This document shows positions 3,941-27,696 of a stretch of DNA of 64,000 nucleotides, piece after piece. The notes below the pieces were generated by a model. The model was not told the origin of the DNA, did not search any database, and saw only the letters and a list, made by a program, of their open reading frames with translations. Source of the stretch: Novosphingobium decolorationis (GTDB taxonomy: Bacteria > Pseudomonadota > Alphaproteobacteria > Sphingomonadales > Sphingomonadaceae). Position 1 is the stretch's first letter. Every line of letters starts with the position of its first letter. The stretch covers positions 1,891,001-1,955,000 of the forward strand of contig NZ_CP054856.1 of the NCBI RefSeq assembly GCF_018417475.1. Direction: 5' to 3'. Made by a program: the position numbers and the translations under genes.

Positions 3941-3955
3941 GCAAGGCGCGTGCCA
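3941..3955 (-). promoter_or_regulatory. sigma-54 promoter of iscA-nifUSV
   Basis: On the minus strand it reads TGGCACGCGCCTTGC, an exact match to the -24/-12 consensus TGGCAC-N5-TTGC. The predicted start would fall around 3930, about 25 bases before the iscA ATG. Confidence 0.92.
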
Positions 3956-4020: not shown

Positions 4021-4036
4021 TGTCGGTTTCGTCACA
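4021..4036. promoter_or_regulatory. NifA upstream activating sequence
   Basis: TGT-CGGTTTCGTC-ACA, an exact TGT-N10-ACA. It lies about 66 bases from the iscA -24 element and about 70 bases from a weak -24-like element on the other strand. Confidence 0.8.
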
Positions 4037-6387: not shown

Positions 6388-6806
6388 GGTGCACCTGCCG
6401 GCCGGGCGACGGGCTTGGGAAGTGGCAGCATGCCCATCTTGAAGCTCTGCGTCATATGCGCGGCGCGCTGCATGGCCGCCGCTGCCAGTTCCTCGGGAAG
6501 GCACTCCTCCACCGCACGGCCGAAAGCGGCCATCCAGCGCGTGAAGTCCTCTTCCTCGACCCTCAGCTTGAGGTGATGGCTGTAGGGTGTGCCGCGCTGG
6601 TAGCGGTCGGTGCCCAGCAGCGCGTGCGACCAGAAATCGCGCACGAAGCCATAGTGCTCGGGAAAGTCCGGGATCATCGCGGCAAACATCGGGCCCAGCC
6701 GGTCGTCCTGGTTGCACAGCGCATAGAAGCGGCGGACCATGGCATCGATCGCGATCTCCGCGCTCTCCCCCTTGGCGAGGGCAGGTCCGATATCGCACCC
6801 GCTCAT
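6384..6806 (-). CDS. truncated hemoglobin, group III-like
   Basis: 140 residues with the 2-on-2 globin pattern: RRFYALCNQDDRLGPMF, then DFPEHYGFVRDFWSHALLG, and the proximal histidine region YSHHLKLRVEEEDFTRWM. Such globins bind O2 or NO with heme. Here it is sandwiched by 4-base overlaps between nifQ and a Rieske ferredoxin, so it is part of the nif operon. A likely role is NO or O2 scavenging, or oxygen delivery to respiration near nitrogenase, with the Rieske protein as a possible reductant. Function is inferred; fold recognition is firm. Confidence 0.9.
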   Translation of the reverse strand: MSGCDIGPALAKGESAEIAIDAMVRRFYALCNQDDRLGPMFAAMIPDFPEHYGFVRDFWSHALLGTDRYQRGTPYSHHLKLRVEEEDFTRWMAAFGRAVEECLPEELAAAAMQRAAHMTQSFKMGMLPLPKPVARPAGAP

Positions 6807-13386: not shown

Positions 13387-14889
13387 TTATTCCGCCGCGA
13401 TGGCCATGGTGTCGCTCTCGCCGGCCTTCCACGGCGTGGGCGCCATCGACCAGACCGGCGAGTTGATCGCCATGTCCATGTCGCGCGCGAAGATCGCGAA
13501 GCCATCATAGCCGTGGTAGGGGCCCGAGTAGTCCCAGCTGTGCATCTGGCGGAAGGGCACGCCCATCTTCTGGAAGACGTACTTTTCCTTGATGCCCGAG
13601 CCGACGAGATCGGGCTGGATCTTGTCGACGAACTTCTCAAACTCGTAGCCGGTGACATCGTCGTAGATAAGCGTGCCGTCCTTGACGTAGTGCTGGGCGG
13701 TGCGCTGGTAGTCGTCGTTGTGGCCGAACTCGTAGCCGGTGCCGACCACTTCCATGCCCAGGTCCTCGTAGGCGCCGATGACGTGGCGCGGACGCAGGCC
13801 GCCGACATAGAGCATGACCGTCTTGCCCTGAAGGCGCGGCTTGTACTTGGCGATGACGGCGTCGGTCAGCGCGCGGTACCTGGCGATCACCTTTTCGGCG
13901 TTTTCCTGGATGGACTCGTCGAAGTAGCTGGCGATCTTGCGCAGGGATTCCTCGATCTTGGAGGGCCCGAAGAAGTTGTATTCCACCCAGGGAATGCCGT
14001 ACTTCTCTTCCATGTGGCGCGAGATGTAGTTCATCGAGCGGTAGCAGTGGAGGACGTTGAGCTTGGCCTTGGGCGTCGCTTCGAGCTCGGCGATCGAGCC
14101 GTCGCCCGACCACTGCGCGATGACGCGAAGGCCCATTTCTTCCAGCAGGATGCGGCTCGACCAGGCATCGCCTCCGATGTTGTAGTCGCCGATGATCGCG
14201 ACGTCATAGGGCGAAGGCTCGAAGGTCGGTTCCTTGTCGCCCACCTTGTCGAAGACCCAGTCGCGCACCGCATCGTTGGCGATGTGGTGGCCAAGCGACT
14301 GCGAGACCCCGCGAAAGCCCTCGCAGCGCACGGGCACGATGGTCTTGCCGCCGTATTCCTTGCTCTTGGACTTGGAGACCGCCTCGATGTCATCGCCGAT
14401 AAGGCCGATCGGGCATTCGGACTGGACCGTGATGCCCTTGTTCAGCGGGAACAGCATCTCGATCTCGTCCATGATCTTGGCGAGCTTCTTGTCGCCGCCA
14501 AAGACGATGTCCTTCTCCTGGAAATCGGAGGTGAACTGCATGGTCACGAAGGTGTCGATGCCGGTCGTGCCGATGTAGTAGTTGCGGCGCGCGGCCCAGG
14601 AATACTGGCCGCAGCCGACCGGCCCGTGGCTGATGTGGATCATGTCCTTGATCGGGCCCCAGACCACGCCCTTGGAGCCTGCGTAGGCGCAGCCGCGGAT
14701 GGTCATGACACCGGGGATCGACTTGATGTTGGATTTGACGCCGCAGTCGCTCTTGCCCTCTTCGGAAACGTTGAGGTGCTTGGCGCGGCGCTTGGCGGAT
14801 TTCGCCGGATAGACTTCAAGGACTTCCTGGATCAACGCCCGGTTGCGTTCCTTGACTTGTGCGATGTCGGTAGGGGTTGAGACGCTCAT
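13387..14889 (-). CDS. nifD: nitrogenase MoFe protein alpha subunit
   Basis: 500-residue NifD. P-cluster cysteines lie in [34 protein letters not shown] and [13 protein letters not shown]. The FeMo-co ligand cysteine is in [20 protein letters not shown] and the ligand histidine in [15 protein letters not shown]. These identify a molybdenum nitrogenase; no small delta-subunit gene (anfG/vnfG) is adjacent. A 165-base gap with a 12-bp hairpin separates it from nifH. Confidence 0.98.
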
Positions 14890-15054: not shown

Positions 15055-15951
<897 letters not shown>

Positions 15952-16065: not shown

Positions 16066-16081
16066 TGCACGGGGCGTGCCA
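16066..16081 (-). promoter_or_regulatory. sigma-54 promoter of nifHDK
   Basis: Reads TGGCACGCCCCGTGCA on the minus strand: TGGCACG-N4-(T)TGCA consensus with GG-N10-GC spacing. It is about 133-148 bases before the nifH ATG, giving a long leader. Confidence 0.9.
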
Positions 16082-16151
16082 AACGTGGCGCAACCACATA
16101 AAATCGCATTAAATAGGTGACTTGGTGCGAATGTCGGAGCCCGCACGGGCA

Positions 16152-16167
16152 TGTGGCAAAGCGAACA
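16152..16167. promoter_or_regulatory. NifA upstream activating sequence
   Basis: TGT-GGCAAAGCGA-ACA, exact consensus, 71 bases beyond the nifH -24 element and 84 bases from the divergent -24 element at 16251. Confidence 0.87.
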
Positions 16168-16180
16168 ATGGGGCGTTGCA

Positions 16181-16196
16181 TGTCGCAAAGGACACA
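16181..16196. promoter_or_regulatory. second NifA upstream activating sequence
   Basis: TGT-CGCAAAGGAC-ACA, exact consensus, 29 bases from the first. The spacer is nearly the same as in the first site (GCAAAG in both). It can serve nifH and the divergent promoter. Confidence 0.87.
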
Positions 16197-16250
16197 CGTT
16201 CGCCCGGCCCCGCCGGCGGCATGTCCGCGCATTTGCGTGCTAGATCGGGA

Positions 16251-16266
16251 TGGAACGCTTCTTGCG
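16251..16266 (+). promoter_or_regulatory. sigma-54 promoter of the receiver-like gene
   Basis: TGGAACGCTTCTTGCG matches TGGCACG-N4-TTGCA except two bases and keeps GG-N10-GC. It lies 36-51 bases before the ATG at 16302 and 55-99 bases from the two NifA sites. Confidence 0.82.
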
Positions 16267-16301
16267 TGGGAGGGATGAGTTCCCATGCACAGGAGAAGCC
16301 C

Positions 16302-16733
16302 ATGCAGATCGGTGTCGAAACCGCCAAGGCCGTCGACCAGCGCCGCATCTTCGTTGTCGACGAGGACGAGATCACCCGCGCCGCCTTGCAGTTCATGCTG
16401 CACGACGAGATCGAAACCCACGAACTGGCGAGCCTGGAGGAAGCCTACGCCAAGGGGCAGGACTGGCTGCGGCCTGATGTACTGATCCTGGGTCTTTCGA
16501 TCCTGCGCGCGCACGGGCTGGAGGTGCTGGCCGAGATCGCCGCGCGCTACCCGGCCGCGCGCGTGCTCATCGTCGCCAGCCCGGAGGAAGAGGAACTGGG
16601 CATCGCCGCGCTGAAAGCGGGCGCCCACGGCGCGCTCATCAAGCCGCTGCGCATGGAGGCGGTGCGCCAGAAGGTCGACACGATCCTCGGGCGCGCGGGC
16701 GGCGCGGCGCTGATACAGCTGGGAGGGTTATAG
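16302..16733 (+). CDS. degenerate response-regulator receiver, divergent from nifH
   Basis: 143-residue CheY-like domain with no output domain. Strand 1 ends in IFVVDEDEITR (acidic pair D20/E21-D22 kept), Ser93 in LIVASPEE stands at the Thr/Ser switch position, and Lys114 in ALIKPLRMEAV is kept. At the end of strand 3 the phosphorylated Asp is replaced: RPDVLILGLSI has Gly64 where PDLVLLD would have Asp. It therefore probably cannot be phosphorylated and may act as a binding module. ATG at 16302 has AGGAGA just upstream. The promoter context (sigma-54 plus shared NifA sites) says it is co-expressed with nitrogenase. Partner unknown. Confidence 0.88.
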   Translation: MQIGVETAKAVDQRRIFVVDEDEITRAALQFMLHDEIETHELASLEEAYAKGQDWLRPDVLILGLSILRAHGLEVLAEIAARYPAARVLIVASPEEEELGIAALKAGAHGALIKPLRMEAVRQKVDTILGRAGGAALIQLGGL

Positions 16734-22432: not shown

Positions 22433-24016
22433 TCACCCCGCCTGGCTGAGCAGCGCACCCTGGCGGATGGCCGCATCGCCGCGCTGCTGGTGGACGATCT
22501 CGCCGCTCGCGATACGTTCAAGGTAGTCCTTGAACCAGACCAGCGCGGACTGTTCGATGTACTCGTGGGCGTACTGGTCGACCGGCTCGACGCCCGCTGC
22601 CTGGAGGTCGGCCTTGGGACAGCCGCCGATCTTGGCGACGAAGACCGCGTGGCAGTCGTTGATCGCCGCGATCACGGTGTCGAGCGCATCCTCCTCGCCA
22701 TAGCCGCCTTGGCAGTAGAGGTCGACGCGGCGGTGGCCGACGAACTTGGCGCCCTTGGCGTTCAGTTCATAGACCTGGAACTCCTTGGCGTGGCCGAAGT
22801 GCTCGTTGATGATCCCGTGGCCCTTGGTGGCAACCGCGACCAGGACCGAGATATCGCCCGCCTTTTCAAGGCCATCCAGTTCGCTCGCCTTGGCGGCCAC
22901 CTTGGCCTGGCGCTCGCCTTCGACCGCCTGCTGGTAGGCCTTGCGGCCTTCGGCGTCGTATTCGATGTCCATCGCCATGATCTTCTCGGTGGTAAACTCG
23001 GCCGAACGATCTTCGCCGAGCAGCCCGACCGCGTCGGCGCGGCACTGGCGGCAGTGGCGCATCATGTTCATGTCGCCCTCGCACGCGTCCTGAAGCGCCT
23101 TGAGCTCCTGCGCGGAAGGGCCGCGCTGGCCGTTGAGACCGAACACGGTGCCATGCTCGGGCGCGGAAATGAGCGGCATGATGTTGTGCAGGAACGCGCC
23201 CCGGCTCTTCACCGCCTTGTTCACCTCGACGAGGTGCGCATCGTTGATGCCCGGGATCATCACCGAGTTGATCTTGGCAAGGATGCCCCGCTCGGTGAGC
23301 ATCTCGAGGCCCAGCATCTGCCGCTCGGTCAGGATCTTGGCGGCTTCATAGCCCTGCAGGCGCTTGTTCTCCCAGAAGATCCAGGGGTAGATGTGCTGGC
23401 CCACTTCGGGGTCCACCATGTTGATGGTGATGGTGACGTGGTCGACCTTGTACTTGGCGATCTCGTCGACCCAGTCGGGCAGCGCGAGGCCATTGGTCGA
23501 GAGGCACAGCTTGATGTCGGGGGCGACCTCGCTGATGAGGCGGAAGGTCTCGAAGGTCTTGGCCGGATTGGCGAGCGGGTCGCCCGGTCCGGCAATGCCC
23601 AGCACGGTCATCTGCGGAATGGTCGAGGCCACCGCAAGCACCTTCTTCGACGCCTGCTCGGGCGTCAGGCGTTCGGAAACGACACCCGGACGGCTCTCGT
23701 TCGCGCAGTCGTACTTGCGGTTACAGTAGTTGCACTGGATGTTGCAGGCGGGCGCGACGGCCACGTGCATGCGTGCGTAGTGGTGGTGGGCTTCTTCGGA
23801 ATAGCACGGGTGGTTCTTCACCTTCTCCCAGATCTCGGGCGGCATGTCGGCCGGCCCTGCGCTCGATCCGCAGCTCGCCTTGCCCGAACCGCCTTCGGTC
23901 CCGCAGCCCTTGTGTTCGGCCACCTTCTGCATGACGTCGGAAATGTCGACGACGCCGTCTGCGGAACTGGCCTCGCGTGTGCTGTCCGGATCCTGGCTGA
24001 AAAGGGTGTCGGTCAT
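22433..24016 (-). CDS. nifB: NifB, radical SAM FeMo-co core synthase
   Basis: 527 residues. N-terminal cysteines in [16 protein letters not shown], then the radical SAM motif [18 protein letters not shown] (CxxxCxxC) and [17 protein letters not shown]. Residues about 380-500 form a NifX-like domain ([37 protein letters not shown]). NifB makes the [8Fe-9S-C] NifB-co precursor. First gene of a 12-gene operon with a consensus -24/-12 promoter 68 bases upstream. Length is normal for the two-domain form. Confidence 0.98.
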
Positions 24017-24083: not shown

Positions 24084-24098
24084 GCAACCTGCGTGCCA
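24084..24098 (-). promoter_or_regulatory. sigma-54 promoter of the nifB operon
   Basis: Reads TGGCACGCAGGTTGC on the minus strand, exact TGGCAC-N5-TTGC. Confidence 0.92.
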
Positions 24099-24165: not shown

Positions 24166-24213
24166 TGTCGCGATTGTCACGCTTGGTACGCCCGCTTTGT
24201 CCGGCTCGCGACA
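24166..24213. promoter_or_regulatory. NifA sites upstream of nifB
   Basis: TGT-CCGGCTCGCG-ACA at 24198-24213 is an exact TGT-N10-ACA, 100 bases from the -24 element. TGT-CGCGATTGTC-ACG at 24166-24181, 32 bases away, is a one-mismatch second site, repeating the tandem spacing seen upstream of iscA. Confidence 0.8.
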
Positions 24214-26503: not shown

Positions 26504-27376
26504 CTAGGTCTCCTTTCCGGGATCATGGGGCGCGGGAAAAGCCACCACGGCGGCACCGTCATGCCCGGTATGGTCCGCGAGCCGGCCCGCCAGTTCGGGC
26601 ACGGCCTCGATGCGCGTGCGCGCCAGCTCACGAATGGCGGGTTCCTCGTCATCGAGCAGCGCAAAGAGATCCTCCTCGGCCAGCCGCTCGGCCACGGTGA
26701 AGCGCACGCGCATGTCGCTGTCCTCGACCAGCAGGCGCAGCGGATCGGGCGGCAACCGCCCGGCAACCTCGCGGCGCACCAGCGGGTCGGGGTCGAACGC
26801 CATGTCGGGCAGCGCGCGCACATCGATGCGCCGGGCGACCCAGGCGCGCACCTCGGGGTCCGGGTCGTGGCGTACCAGTGGCAGCATCTCGACCGGCATG
26901 CGCCGCACCGCGGTGATGCGCACCATGTAGGCCTCGTCGCGGATTGCAGGCACCAGGTCCGCCCCGGTCAGGCGCGAGGCCGCCGCGATGCGCACGTCGA
27001 TGTCCTCGTCGTGGATCATGTCGCGGATCCTTTCTGCAGGCAGGCGCAGCGTCGCCATCGCGCGGACTTCGGGTTCGGGATCGTCCAGCAGGGGAGCGAG
27101 CCGGAACACCGTGGCGTGGCGCGCGGCGCCTGCGCGCACCTCGAAATAGGGATGGTCAAGGTACTGGTCGGCAAGTTCGGGATTGGCGCGCAGGAACGTT
27201 TCCACCCGGCGCGCGCGGCGGTCGCGGATGCAGGCGCGCCCCTTGGCGCACAGGCCCATCGCGTTGATCGCCTGGTGGTCGCACTCGCGGCAGCGCACCG
27301 GGCGCCCCTTCCAGTCGAGCGCGGCACCCAGGTTGTCCTCGAAGGCGTTGTCCTCGAAGGCCACGGCCCGTCCCAT
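26504..27376 (-). CDS. LRV protein with N-terminal Fe-S domain
   Basis: 290 residues. N-terminal cysteine array VRCRECDHQAINAMGLCAKG with a further cysteine in RACIRDRR is the 4Fe-4S LRV domain. About eight leucine-rich variant repeats follow (for example LAPLLDDPEPEVRAMATLRL; MLPLVRHDPDPEVRAWVARR; LRLLVEDSDMRVRFTVAERL). This protein family was first described from an Azotobacter nif region. Probable redox or iron-sensing protein-binding scaffold; unproven. Encoded 16 bases after a ferredoxin gene. Confidence 0.9.
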   Translation of the reverse strand: MGRAVAFEDNAFEDNLGAALDWKGRPVRCRECDHQAINAMGLCAKGRACIRDRRARRVETFLRANPELADQYLDHPYFEVRAGAARHATVFRLAPLLDDPEPEVRAMATLRLPAERIRDMIHDEDIDVRIAAASRLTGADLVPAIRDEAYMVRITAVRRMPVEMLPLVRHDPDPEVRAWVARRIDVRALPDMAFDPDPLVRREVAGRLPPDPLRLLVEDSDMRVRFTVAERLAEEDLFALLDDEEPAIRELARTRIEAVPELAGRLADHTGHDGAAVVAFPAPHDPGKET

Positions 27377-27621: not shown

Positions 27622-27636
27622 GCAGGAAGCGTGCCA
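27622..27636 (-). promoter_or_regulatory. sigma-54 promoter of the ferredoxin-nifT operon
   Basis: Reads TGGCACGCTTCCTGC on the minus strand: TGGCAC-N5-(C)TGC, one change from consensus, correct GG-N10-GC spacing. Confidence 0.85.
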
Positions 27637-27680: not shown

Positions 27681-27696
27681 TGTCCGGGACCCGACA
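27681..27696. promoter_or_regulatory. NifA upstream activating sequence
   Basis: TGT-CCGGGACCCG-ACA, exact TGT-N10-ACA, 45 bases from the -24 element: closer than at the other nif promoters. Confidence 0.7.

What the first reader, a model, noticed from the sequence alone, without database searches (positions are those of the whole stretch)
16066..16733. A phosphorylation-dead receiver protein under NifA/sigma-54 control, divergent from nifH
The 143-residue CheY-like protein keeps the acidic pair, Ser93 and Lys114 but has Gly64 in place of the phospho-acceptor Asp. It has its own -24/-12 promoter (TGGAACGCTTCTTGCG) and shares two exact NifA sites with nifH. A stand-alone pseudo-receiver expressed together with nitrogenase suggests a protein-protein switch or dosage sensor. 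I do not know a named nif gene of this kind.
Basis: partly seen in the sequence, partly recalled or inferred. Interest (0 to 1): 0.82.

Follow-up and report, generated by a model that had tools for sequence, protein, structure and literature searches.

The report
Overlooked nitrogenase-linked pseudo-receiver protein family
Next to the gene for nitrogenase's iron protein, and probably switched on with it, lies a small signalling-type protein that has lost its on/off phosphate site; the same altered protein sits in the same place in many bacteria with nitrogen-fixation genes, so it looks like an unnamed part of that kit.

Summary
Window 16302-16733 (+) encodes a 143-aa stand-alone receiver-fold protein, divergent from nifH, with Gly64 where the phospho-acceptor Asp belongs. 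Seven other receivers of the genome that I checked all have Asp there. Gly is fixed: 357 of 361 listed family proteins, none with Asp. In 73 of 80 related loci nifH lies divergently 350-592 bp away; the other 7 hold at most 442 bases upstream. The arrangement recurs in one gammaproteobacterium. In the window's genus the gene and nifH occur in the same 19 of 195 genomes. Both sides carry sigma-54-like sites, and 73 of 74 intergenic regions carry TGT-N10-ACA. One detail is wrong: Ser93 is not the switch residue; that is position 92, Ala here. Conservation sits in a predicted-disordered N-terminal tail (QIGV) and the alpha1-beta2 region. I read it as a phosphorylation-independent docking protein made with nitrogenase, most likely acting on nitrogenase supply or protection; a NifA feedback role is the main rival. 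Partner and expression are unknown. Nothing found here names it.

The parts
16302..16733 (+). 143-aa stand-alone pseudo-receiver gene (Gly64 at the phospho-acceptor position)
16251..16266 (+). sigma-54-like -24/-12 promoter TGGAACGCTTCTTGCG for the pseudo-receiver
   Evidence: best sites upstream of orthologues match 8-10 of 11 consensus letters
16152..16167 (.). NifA-type upstream site TGT-N10-ACA, first of two
16181..16196 (.). NifA-type upstream site TGT-N10-ACA, second, 29 bp from the first; the 29-bp spacing recurs in many orthologous regions and in the gamma locus
16066..16081 (-). sigma-54-like promoter of nifH, TGGCACGCCCCGTGCA
15055..15933 (-). nifH, nitrogenase iron protein, divergent neighbour
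13387..14889 (-). nifD
   Evidence: TIGR01282
11785..13344 (-). nifK
   Evidence: TIGR01286

Best explanation
It is a member of an unnamed, nitrogenase-associated family of stand-alone pseudo-receivers. Shown by computation: receiver fold (predicted); the acceptor Asp replaced by an essentially fixed Gly; no output domain; location divergent from nifH; conserved NifA/sigma-54-type promoter elements; purifying selection; presence of nifH in the carrier genomes that were searched for it. Inferred: NifA switches it on together with the iron protein, so it is made when nitrogenase is made. It does not relay phosphate through the usual site. It acts as a permanently competent docking protein, using its invariant N-terminal tail (QIGV) and the conserved alpha1/beta2 region. 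Inferred, most likely target: the nitrogenase side, meaning the iron protein or its Fe-S supply and oxygen protection. This matters mainly for nitrogen fixation by free-living cells.
For: Gly fixed, Asp not seen: 357 of 361 listed proteins in three search sets, and 80 of 80 contextual loci. Divergent from nifH in 73 of 80 loci, the other 7 being contig ends, also in gamma Methylococcus and in the four carriers, one of them the window's own genome, of a 299-genome sample. Same 19 of 195 genomes in the genus. In BTAi1 and two other Bradyrhizobium genomes a paralogue again sits opposite a further nifH copy, with paired sites. dN/dS 0.06-0.20 against the window for the 12 close relatives I chose; pseudo-receiver and NifH distances correlate, Mantel r 0.76 over 56 loci, 0 of 2000 permutations as high. 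Lowest mean entropy: residues 34-36, alpha1, beta2, the KP motif and tail 1-11; highest in alpha3 and alpha4. The tail is predicted disordered, pLDDT below 50 for residues 1-9. Neighbours in other taxa: ArsC-like, nitroreductase, ankyrin, SufE, ferredoxin-like, glutaredoxin-like, globin. Free-living link: in Bradyrhizobium DOA9 the gene accompanies only one of two nifH copies, the one on the chromosome contig; the abstract of PMC6066989 says the chromosomal NifA is essential for free-living fixation.
Against: No partner, expression or mutant data were available. Many nif-bearing genomes lack it: only 4 of the 36 with nifH over the cut-off in the phylum sample had it, so it is not essential for catalysis. 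In the window it stands alone: the next gene is on the other strand (SIP family), so neighbourhood evidence comes from other taxa. Three Methylocystis paralogues lie beside a globin and a NifA-like gene, with no nifH in the fetched stretch, which favours the NifA rival, and a NifA-like gene lies about 21 kb from the gene in the window's own genome. The distance correlation was not corrected for species phylogeny.
Confidence: 0.45

Rival explanations
1. Feedback regulator of NifA: the NifA-induced pseudo-receiver binds NifA (or its GAF/AAA+ part) and tunes or shuts off nif transcription, as a stand-in for the receiver domains that govern related sigma-54 activators.
For: Likely NifA-driven own promoter. 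Methylocystis paralogues lie in the order pseudo-receiver, globin, NifA-like gene in 3 of 3 such loci. A NifA-like gene is in the same region: about 21 kb away in the own genome, 6.3 kb from the BTAi1 paralogue, and AZC_1049 against nifH AZC_1041 in Azorhizobium. Fold matches include receivers of the sigma-54 activators NtrX, NtrC1 and NtrC4, though these are only general receiver matches.
Against: The main gene is tied to nifH: no NifA-like match over 150 bits lies in the fetched flanks of L028-L108. Paralogues lie opposite nifH in 3 of 7 cases. A transcription feedback protein would not need nifH-level expression (inference).
Confidence: 0.27
2. Decoy or sink for a histidine kinase: the conserved alpha1 region, which in ordinary response regulators takes part in kinase docking (recalled), lets it sequester a kinase such as NtrB/NtrY or FixL without accepting phosphate.
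For: Conservation is high in alpha1 (0.36 bits) and intermediate in alpha5 (0.97) while alpha4 is variable (1.87).
Against: The invariant QIGV tail and the beta2 residues are not explained by kinase docking. Kinase genes among the neighbours were not searched for.
Confidence: 0.12
3. Phosphorylated or ligand-responsive at another residue, so that it still switches (for example through the retained D22/K114 pocket).
For: D22 and K114 are nearly invariant.
Against: The second acidic position (21) is mostly lost in the gamma and paralogue sets, and position 92 varies T/A/C in the alpha set and is mostly Ala elsewhere.
Confidence: 0.1
4. A decaying response regulator of no consequence.
For: Loss of the acceptor Asp alone.
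Against: Low dN/dS and a fixed Gly across alpha and gamma lineages.
Confidence: 0.01

Closest known systems
Canonical single-domain response regulators (CheY, Spo0F, DivK; Pfam PF00072)
   Different: No acceptor Asp, no Ser/Thr at position 92, invariant N-terminal tail, nif-linked with its own NifA/sigma-54-type promoter
Pseudo-receivers / atypical receivers as a class (KaiA, CikA, FrzS and similar; recalled, none tested)
   Same: Receiver fold without the acceptor Asp, expected to work by protein contacts
   Different: Stand-alone, family-wide fixed Gly, tied to nifH; no sequence comparison with those proteins was made
DraT/DraG nitrogenase switch-off system
   Same: In one sampled genome without this family (G043) draT lies divergently beside nifH, i.e. 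in the same slot; PMC3169532 (passages read) also puts draTG upstream of nifH in A. brasilense
   Different: No DRAT match in this protein; DraT found in only 3 of 33 searched locus genomes carrying the family
FixJ / NtrX / NtrC receivers
   Same: High-ranking fold matches
   Different: Those keep Asp and carry DNA-binding or AAA+ outputs (recalled); only 18-25% identity in the rows seen

Membership tests
Receiver-domain superfamily (PF00072) | Profile match over the curated cut-off and receiver fold | tested here: met
   56.8 bits against cut-off 30.2; model mean pLDDT 84.1 and receivers as best folds
Phospho-responsive response regulator | Acceptor Asp at the end of beta3 | tested here: not met
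   Gly64; 0 Asp in 361 listed family proteins; Asp in 7 of 7 other receivers of the genome that were checked
Phospho-responsive response regulator | Switch Ser/Thr at the end of beta4 | tested here: not met
   Ala92 here; in the family T86 A29 C6 of 121 in the alpha set, mostly Ala in the other two sets
Phospho-responsive response regulator | Acidic pair and conserved Lys | tested here: met
   D20/E21 and K114 here; the second acid is mostly lost in the gamma and paralogue sets
Pseudo-receiver | Receiver fold with acceptor Asp lost and stably so | tested here: met
NifA/sigma-54 regulon member | TGT-N10-ACA plus -24/-12 site upstream, NifA-like gene and RpoN in the genome | tested here: met
NifA/sigma-54 regulon member | NifA-dependent transcription | not testable with these tools
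   needs expression data
DraT family | PF07357 match | tested here: not met
   Pfam gives only Response_reg and a sub-cut-off repeat match; no DraT in the window's genome
Any named NCBIfam family | Match over a curated cut-off | tested here: not met
   None of the best 25 (of 62) matches reaches its cut-off; the top is 40.3 bits against 250

The most novel reading that the evidence does not exclude
The protein is a stoichiometric accessory or regulatory partner of the nitrogenase iron protein. It is a receiver fold converted into a permanent docking module that keeps nitrogenase safe or in check in free-living diazotrophs, an overlooked nif gene found in both alpha- and gammaproteobacteria and missing beside the second nifH of some strains.
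Probability: 0.3. Interest if true: 0.87.

Novelty: new variant of a known kind. Interest (0 to 1): 0.68.

Why it matters
The gene beside nifH in a wide set of diazotrophs is filed as 'response regulator', 'CheY' or hypothetical protein (source names). If it guards or tunes nitrogenase it is a missing part for efforts to move nitrogen fixation into new hosts, and a clear case of a receiver turned into a phosphate-independent adaptor. It is testable by one deletion.

Tried and rejected
Own-genome paralogues: the other ten receiver matches are 22-29% identical, so there is no recent duplicate. Broad samples: the family is rare, 2 of 289 genomes in a class sample and 2 of 199 in a family sample, the window's genome being one of the two each time. 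Plasmid collection: of 34 records hit, only Methylococcus sp. EFPC2 (55.6%) is a family member; the rest are at most 36% identical, i.e. ordinary receivers by my reading. DraT replacement idea: 3 of 33 searched family-carrying locus genomes have DraT (one listed locus, L051, was not held), but only 1 of 5 sampled same-class nifH genomes without the family has it, so exclusion is not shown; only the shared slot is noted. Co-transcribed partner in the window: none seen, the next gene is on the minus strand. Literature: ten paper searches; two gave no paper, one search listed 30 of 4,888, and no listed title or abstract start names such a gene. Seen: PMC4999443 (abstract, passages, section 21: not among the NifA targets named there), PMC3169532 (passages: three unnamed conserved hypothetical genes shared with BTAi1, figure not held, so it may be one of them), PMC12903952 (passages), PMC2443382 (passages with table 2: no entry between nifH AZC_1041 and nifA AZC_1049), PMC3927601 (one passage), PMC6066989 (abstract and one passage). 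Supplements were not available and most subscription papers are not held. Gamma context rests on one locus. Homologue counts use the best 120 rows of each search (of 1585, 1281 and 232 hits). The weaker, unlisted hits probably include ordinary receivers with Asp (inference). Foldseek and VIA-align show only general receivers. The shuffles keep base composition only, and on the pseudo-receiver side scores of 8 are common in shuffles.

Full report
What is there. Window 16302-16733 (+) encodes 143 residues that match the receiver family at 56.8 bits and are predicted to fold as a receiver over residues 12-129. nifH (15055-15933, minus), nifD, nifK, nifE and nifN follow leftwards. The position that accepts phosphate in response regulators is Gly64. 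As a control, seven other receivers of the same genome (of ten matches, those that came with a locus) all carry Asp at the aligned position. Ser93 is not: the switch Thr/Ser position is 92 and is Ala here, while the seven controls have Thr or Ser.

Is the Gly an accident? No. In 321 proteins from two searches plus loci, Gly is found in 121 of 121, 80 of 80 and 118 of 120 of the three sets. Adding the set of a paralogue search and leaving out the loci, 357 of 361 have Gly, with 2 Ser, 1 Glu, 1 Ala and no Asp. These are the best 120 rows of each of three searches plus the window's protein. After thinning the 321 to below 85% identity, 119 of 120 have Gly. Three Methylocystis paralogues fetched by place, outside that count, read LMLAEG or LVLAEG, i.e. 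Ala, there; the other four fetched paralogues have Gly.

Where it lives. A scan of one genome per species gave 126 relatives, of which the best 80 were returned. In 73 of the 80, nifH lies divergently 350-592 bp away (in some only its first part is on the contig). The other 7 (L055, L058, L059, L062, L076, L094, L101) hold only 172-442 bases upstream of the gene. Genera in the record titles include Novosphingobium, Sphingomonas, Sphingobium, Alteraurantiacibacter, Bradyrhizobium, Azorhizobium, Xanthobacter, Aquabacter, Methylocystis, Methylocapsa, Rhodoblastus, Nitrospirillum and Azospirillum. The gammaproteobacterium Methylococcus sp. EFPC2 has the same divergent pair on a plasmid with its nif cluster; it is the only gamma locus I saw. 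In the window's genus, 19 of 195 genomes have the protein and the same 19 have nifH. In broader samples it is rare: 2 of 289 (class), 2 of 199 (family) and 4 of 299 (phylum), the window's genome being one each time. All four of the last lie next to nifH, while 36 of the 299 have nifH over the cut-off. So there the protein implies nifH, but not the reverse.

Control region. Of 74 intergenic regions (73 loci and the window), 73 have at least one TGT-N10-ACA site against about 0.05 per shuffled region (mononucleotide shuffles). The nifH side matches 9-11 and the other side 8-10 of 11 sigma-54 consensus letters. In shuffled sequence the best score is mostly 7 or 8 (9 or more in 46 of 1480), so the pseudo-receiver side is not above chance where it scores 8. 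The gamma region has two sites 29 bp apart, as in the window, and promoter-like sites of 10 and 11 letters. A NifA-like gene and rpoN exist in the genome. NifA control is therefore well supported but not shown by expression.

Paralogues. Of 33 locus genomes searched, 7 have a second, more divergent copy. I fetched the seven regions. In three (L117 of BTAi1, L121, L122) the copy again lies opposite a nifH (in L122 only 20 residues of it are on the contig) with paired sites. In the three Methylocystis ones (L118, L119, L123) it is followed by a bacterial globin and then a NifA-like gene (domains from Pfam in L118; the other two by similarity), with no nifH in the stretch. In L120 no nifH was found in the stretch; a SufE-like gene follows. 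A globin also directly follows the main gene in Methylococcus and in G840. Elsewhere an ArsC-like match begins on the same strand within 300 nt in 42 of 80 loci (my count), often with nitroreductase, ankyrin, SufE, ferredoxin-like or glutaredoxin-like genes nearby (the last two names come from the sequences' look, not from a Pfam match: the ferredoxin-like one had none and the glutaredoxin-like one was not scanned).

Free-living link. Of 20 family-carrying genomes searched for nifH, 8 have two nifH matches. In 5 of these 8 only one pseudo-receiver was found: G953, G954, G958, G962, G976. In DOA9 (G954) the nifH on the chromosome contig has it and the copy on the second contig does not; the abstract of PMC6066989 reports nif genes on chromosome and plasmid and that the chromosomal NifA is the one essential for free-living fixation. 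In G702, a genus mate of the carrier G853, the gene divergent from nifH looks ArsC-like by eye and the pseudo-receiver was not found. That this reflects lifestyle is inference.

Constraint and surface. Against 12 close relatives dN/dS is 0.06-0.20 (dS up to 1.15). Pairwise distances follow NifH (Mantel r 0.76, 56 loci, 0 of 2000 permutations as high), though shared ancestry alone could give this. Mean column entropy is lowest in residues 34-36 (0.06 bits), alpha1 and beta2 (0.36), the KP motif (0.51) and the N-terminal tail (0.53), and highest in alpha3 (2.06) and alpha4 (1.87). QIGV at positions 2-5 is invariant in all 321 proteins yet predicted disordered, as expected of a docking peptide (inference). 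In the paralogue set the tail differs (mostly MPIDL).

Reading. I take it as a phosphate-independent docking protein co-produced with nitrogenase. The nitrogenase side is preferred as target because of the link to nifH, a paralogue opposite a further nifH in three genomes, and redox/Fe-S neighbours. A NifA-directed feedback is the main rival because of the Methylocystis paralogues and because a NifA-like gene lies in the wider region: about 21 kb away in the own genome.

What is known. No NCBIfam model among the best 25 matches claims it, and no title or abstract start listed by ten paper searches names it. A regulon reconstruction of 50 alphaproteobacteria (PMC4999443, section 21) does not name it among NifA targets; its supplements were not seen. 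The Azorhizobium genome paper's table lists nifH AZC_1041 and nifA AZC_1049 with nothing between. Subscription literature was not searchable.

Noticed in passing
window 3941-3955 (-) with TGT-N10-ACA at 4021 and 4053: Another sigma-54-like promoter with two NifA-type sites just behind it, reading left; the gene it serves was not identified.
   Followed up: no
window 24084-24098 (-) with a TGT-N10-ACA site at 24198: Likely NifA/sigma-54 promoter of nifB (22433-24016, minus; TIGR01290).
   Followed up: partly
window 27622-27636 (-) with a TGT-N10-ACA site at 27681: Sigma-54-like promoter reading towards a minus-strand ORF 26504-27376 with no NCBIfam match at E 1e-8.
   Followed up: partly
window 6420-6776 (-): A globin-like stretch related to the one beside the Methylocystis paralogue lies within the nif region; related stretches occur in many of the Novosphingobium loci.
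   Followed up: partly
L118 7222-10999; also L119 and L123: Methylocystis pseudo-receiver paralogue, globin and NifA-like gene in a row, with Ala at the acceptor position.
   Followed up: partly
L108 4711-6680 and 2179-4596: Methylococcus plasmid region with the nif cluster carries annotated clpX, clpP and lon genes.
   Followed up: no
L126 2669-4679: In a nifH genome without this family, draT occupies the slot divergent from nifH.
   Followed up: partly
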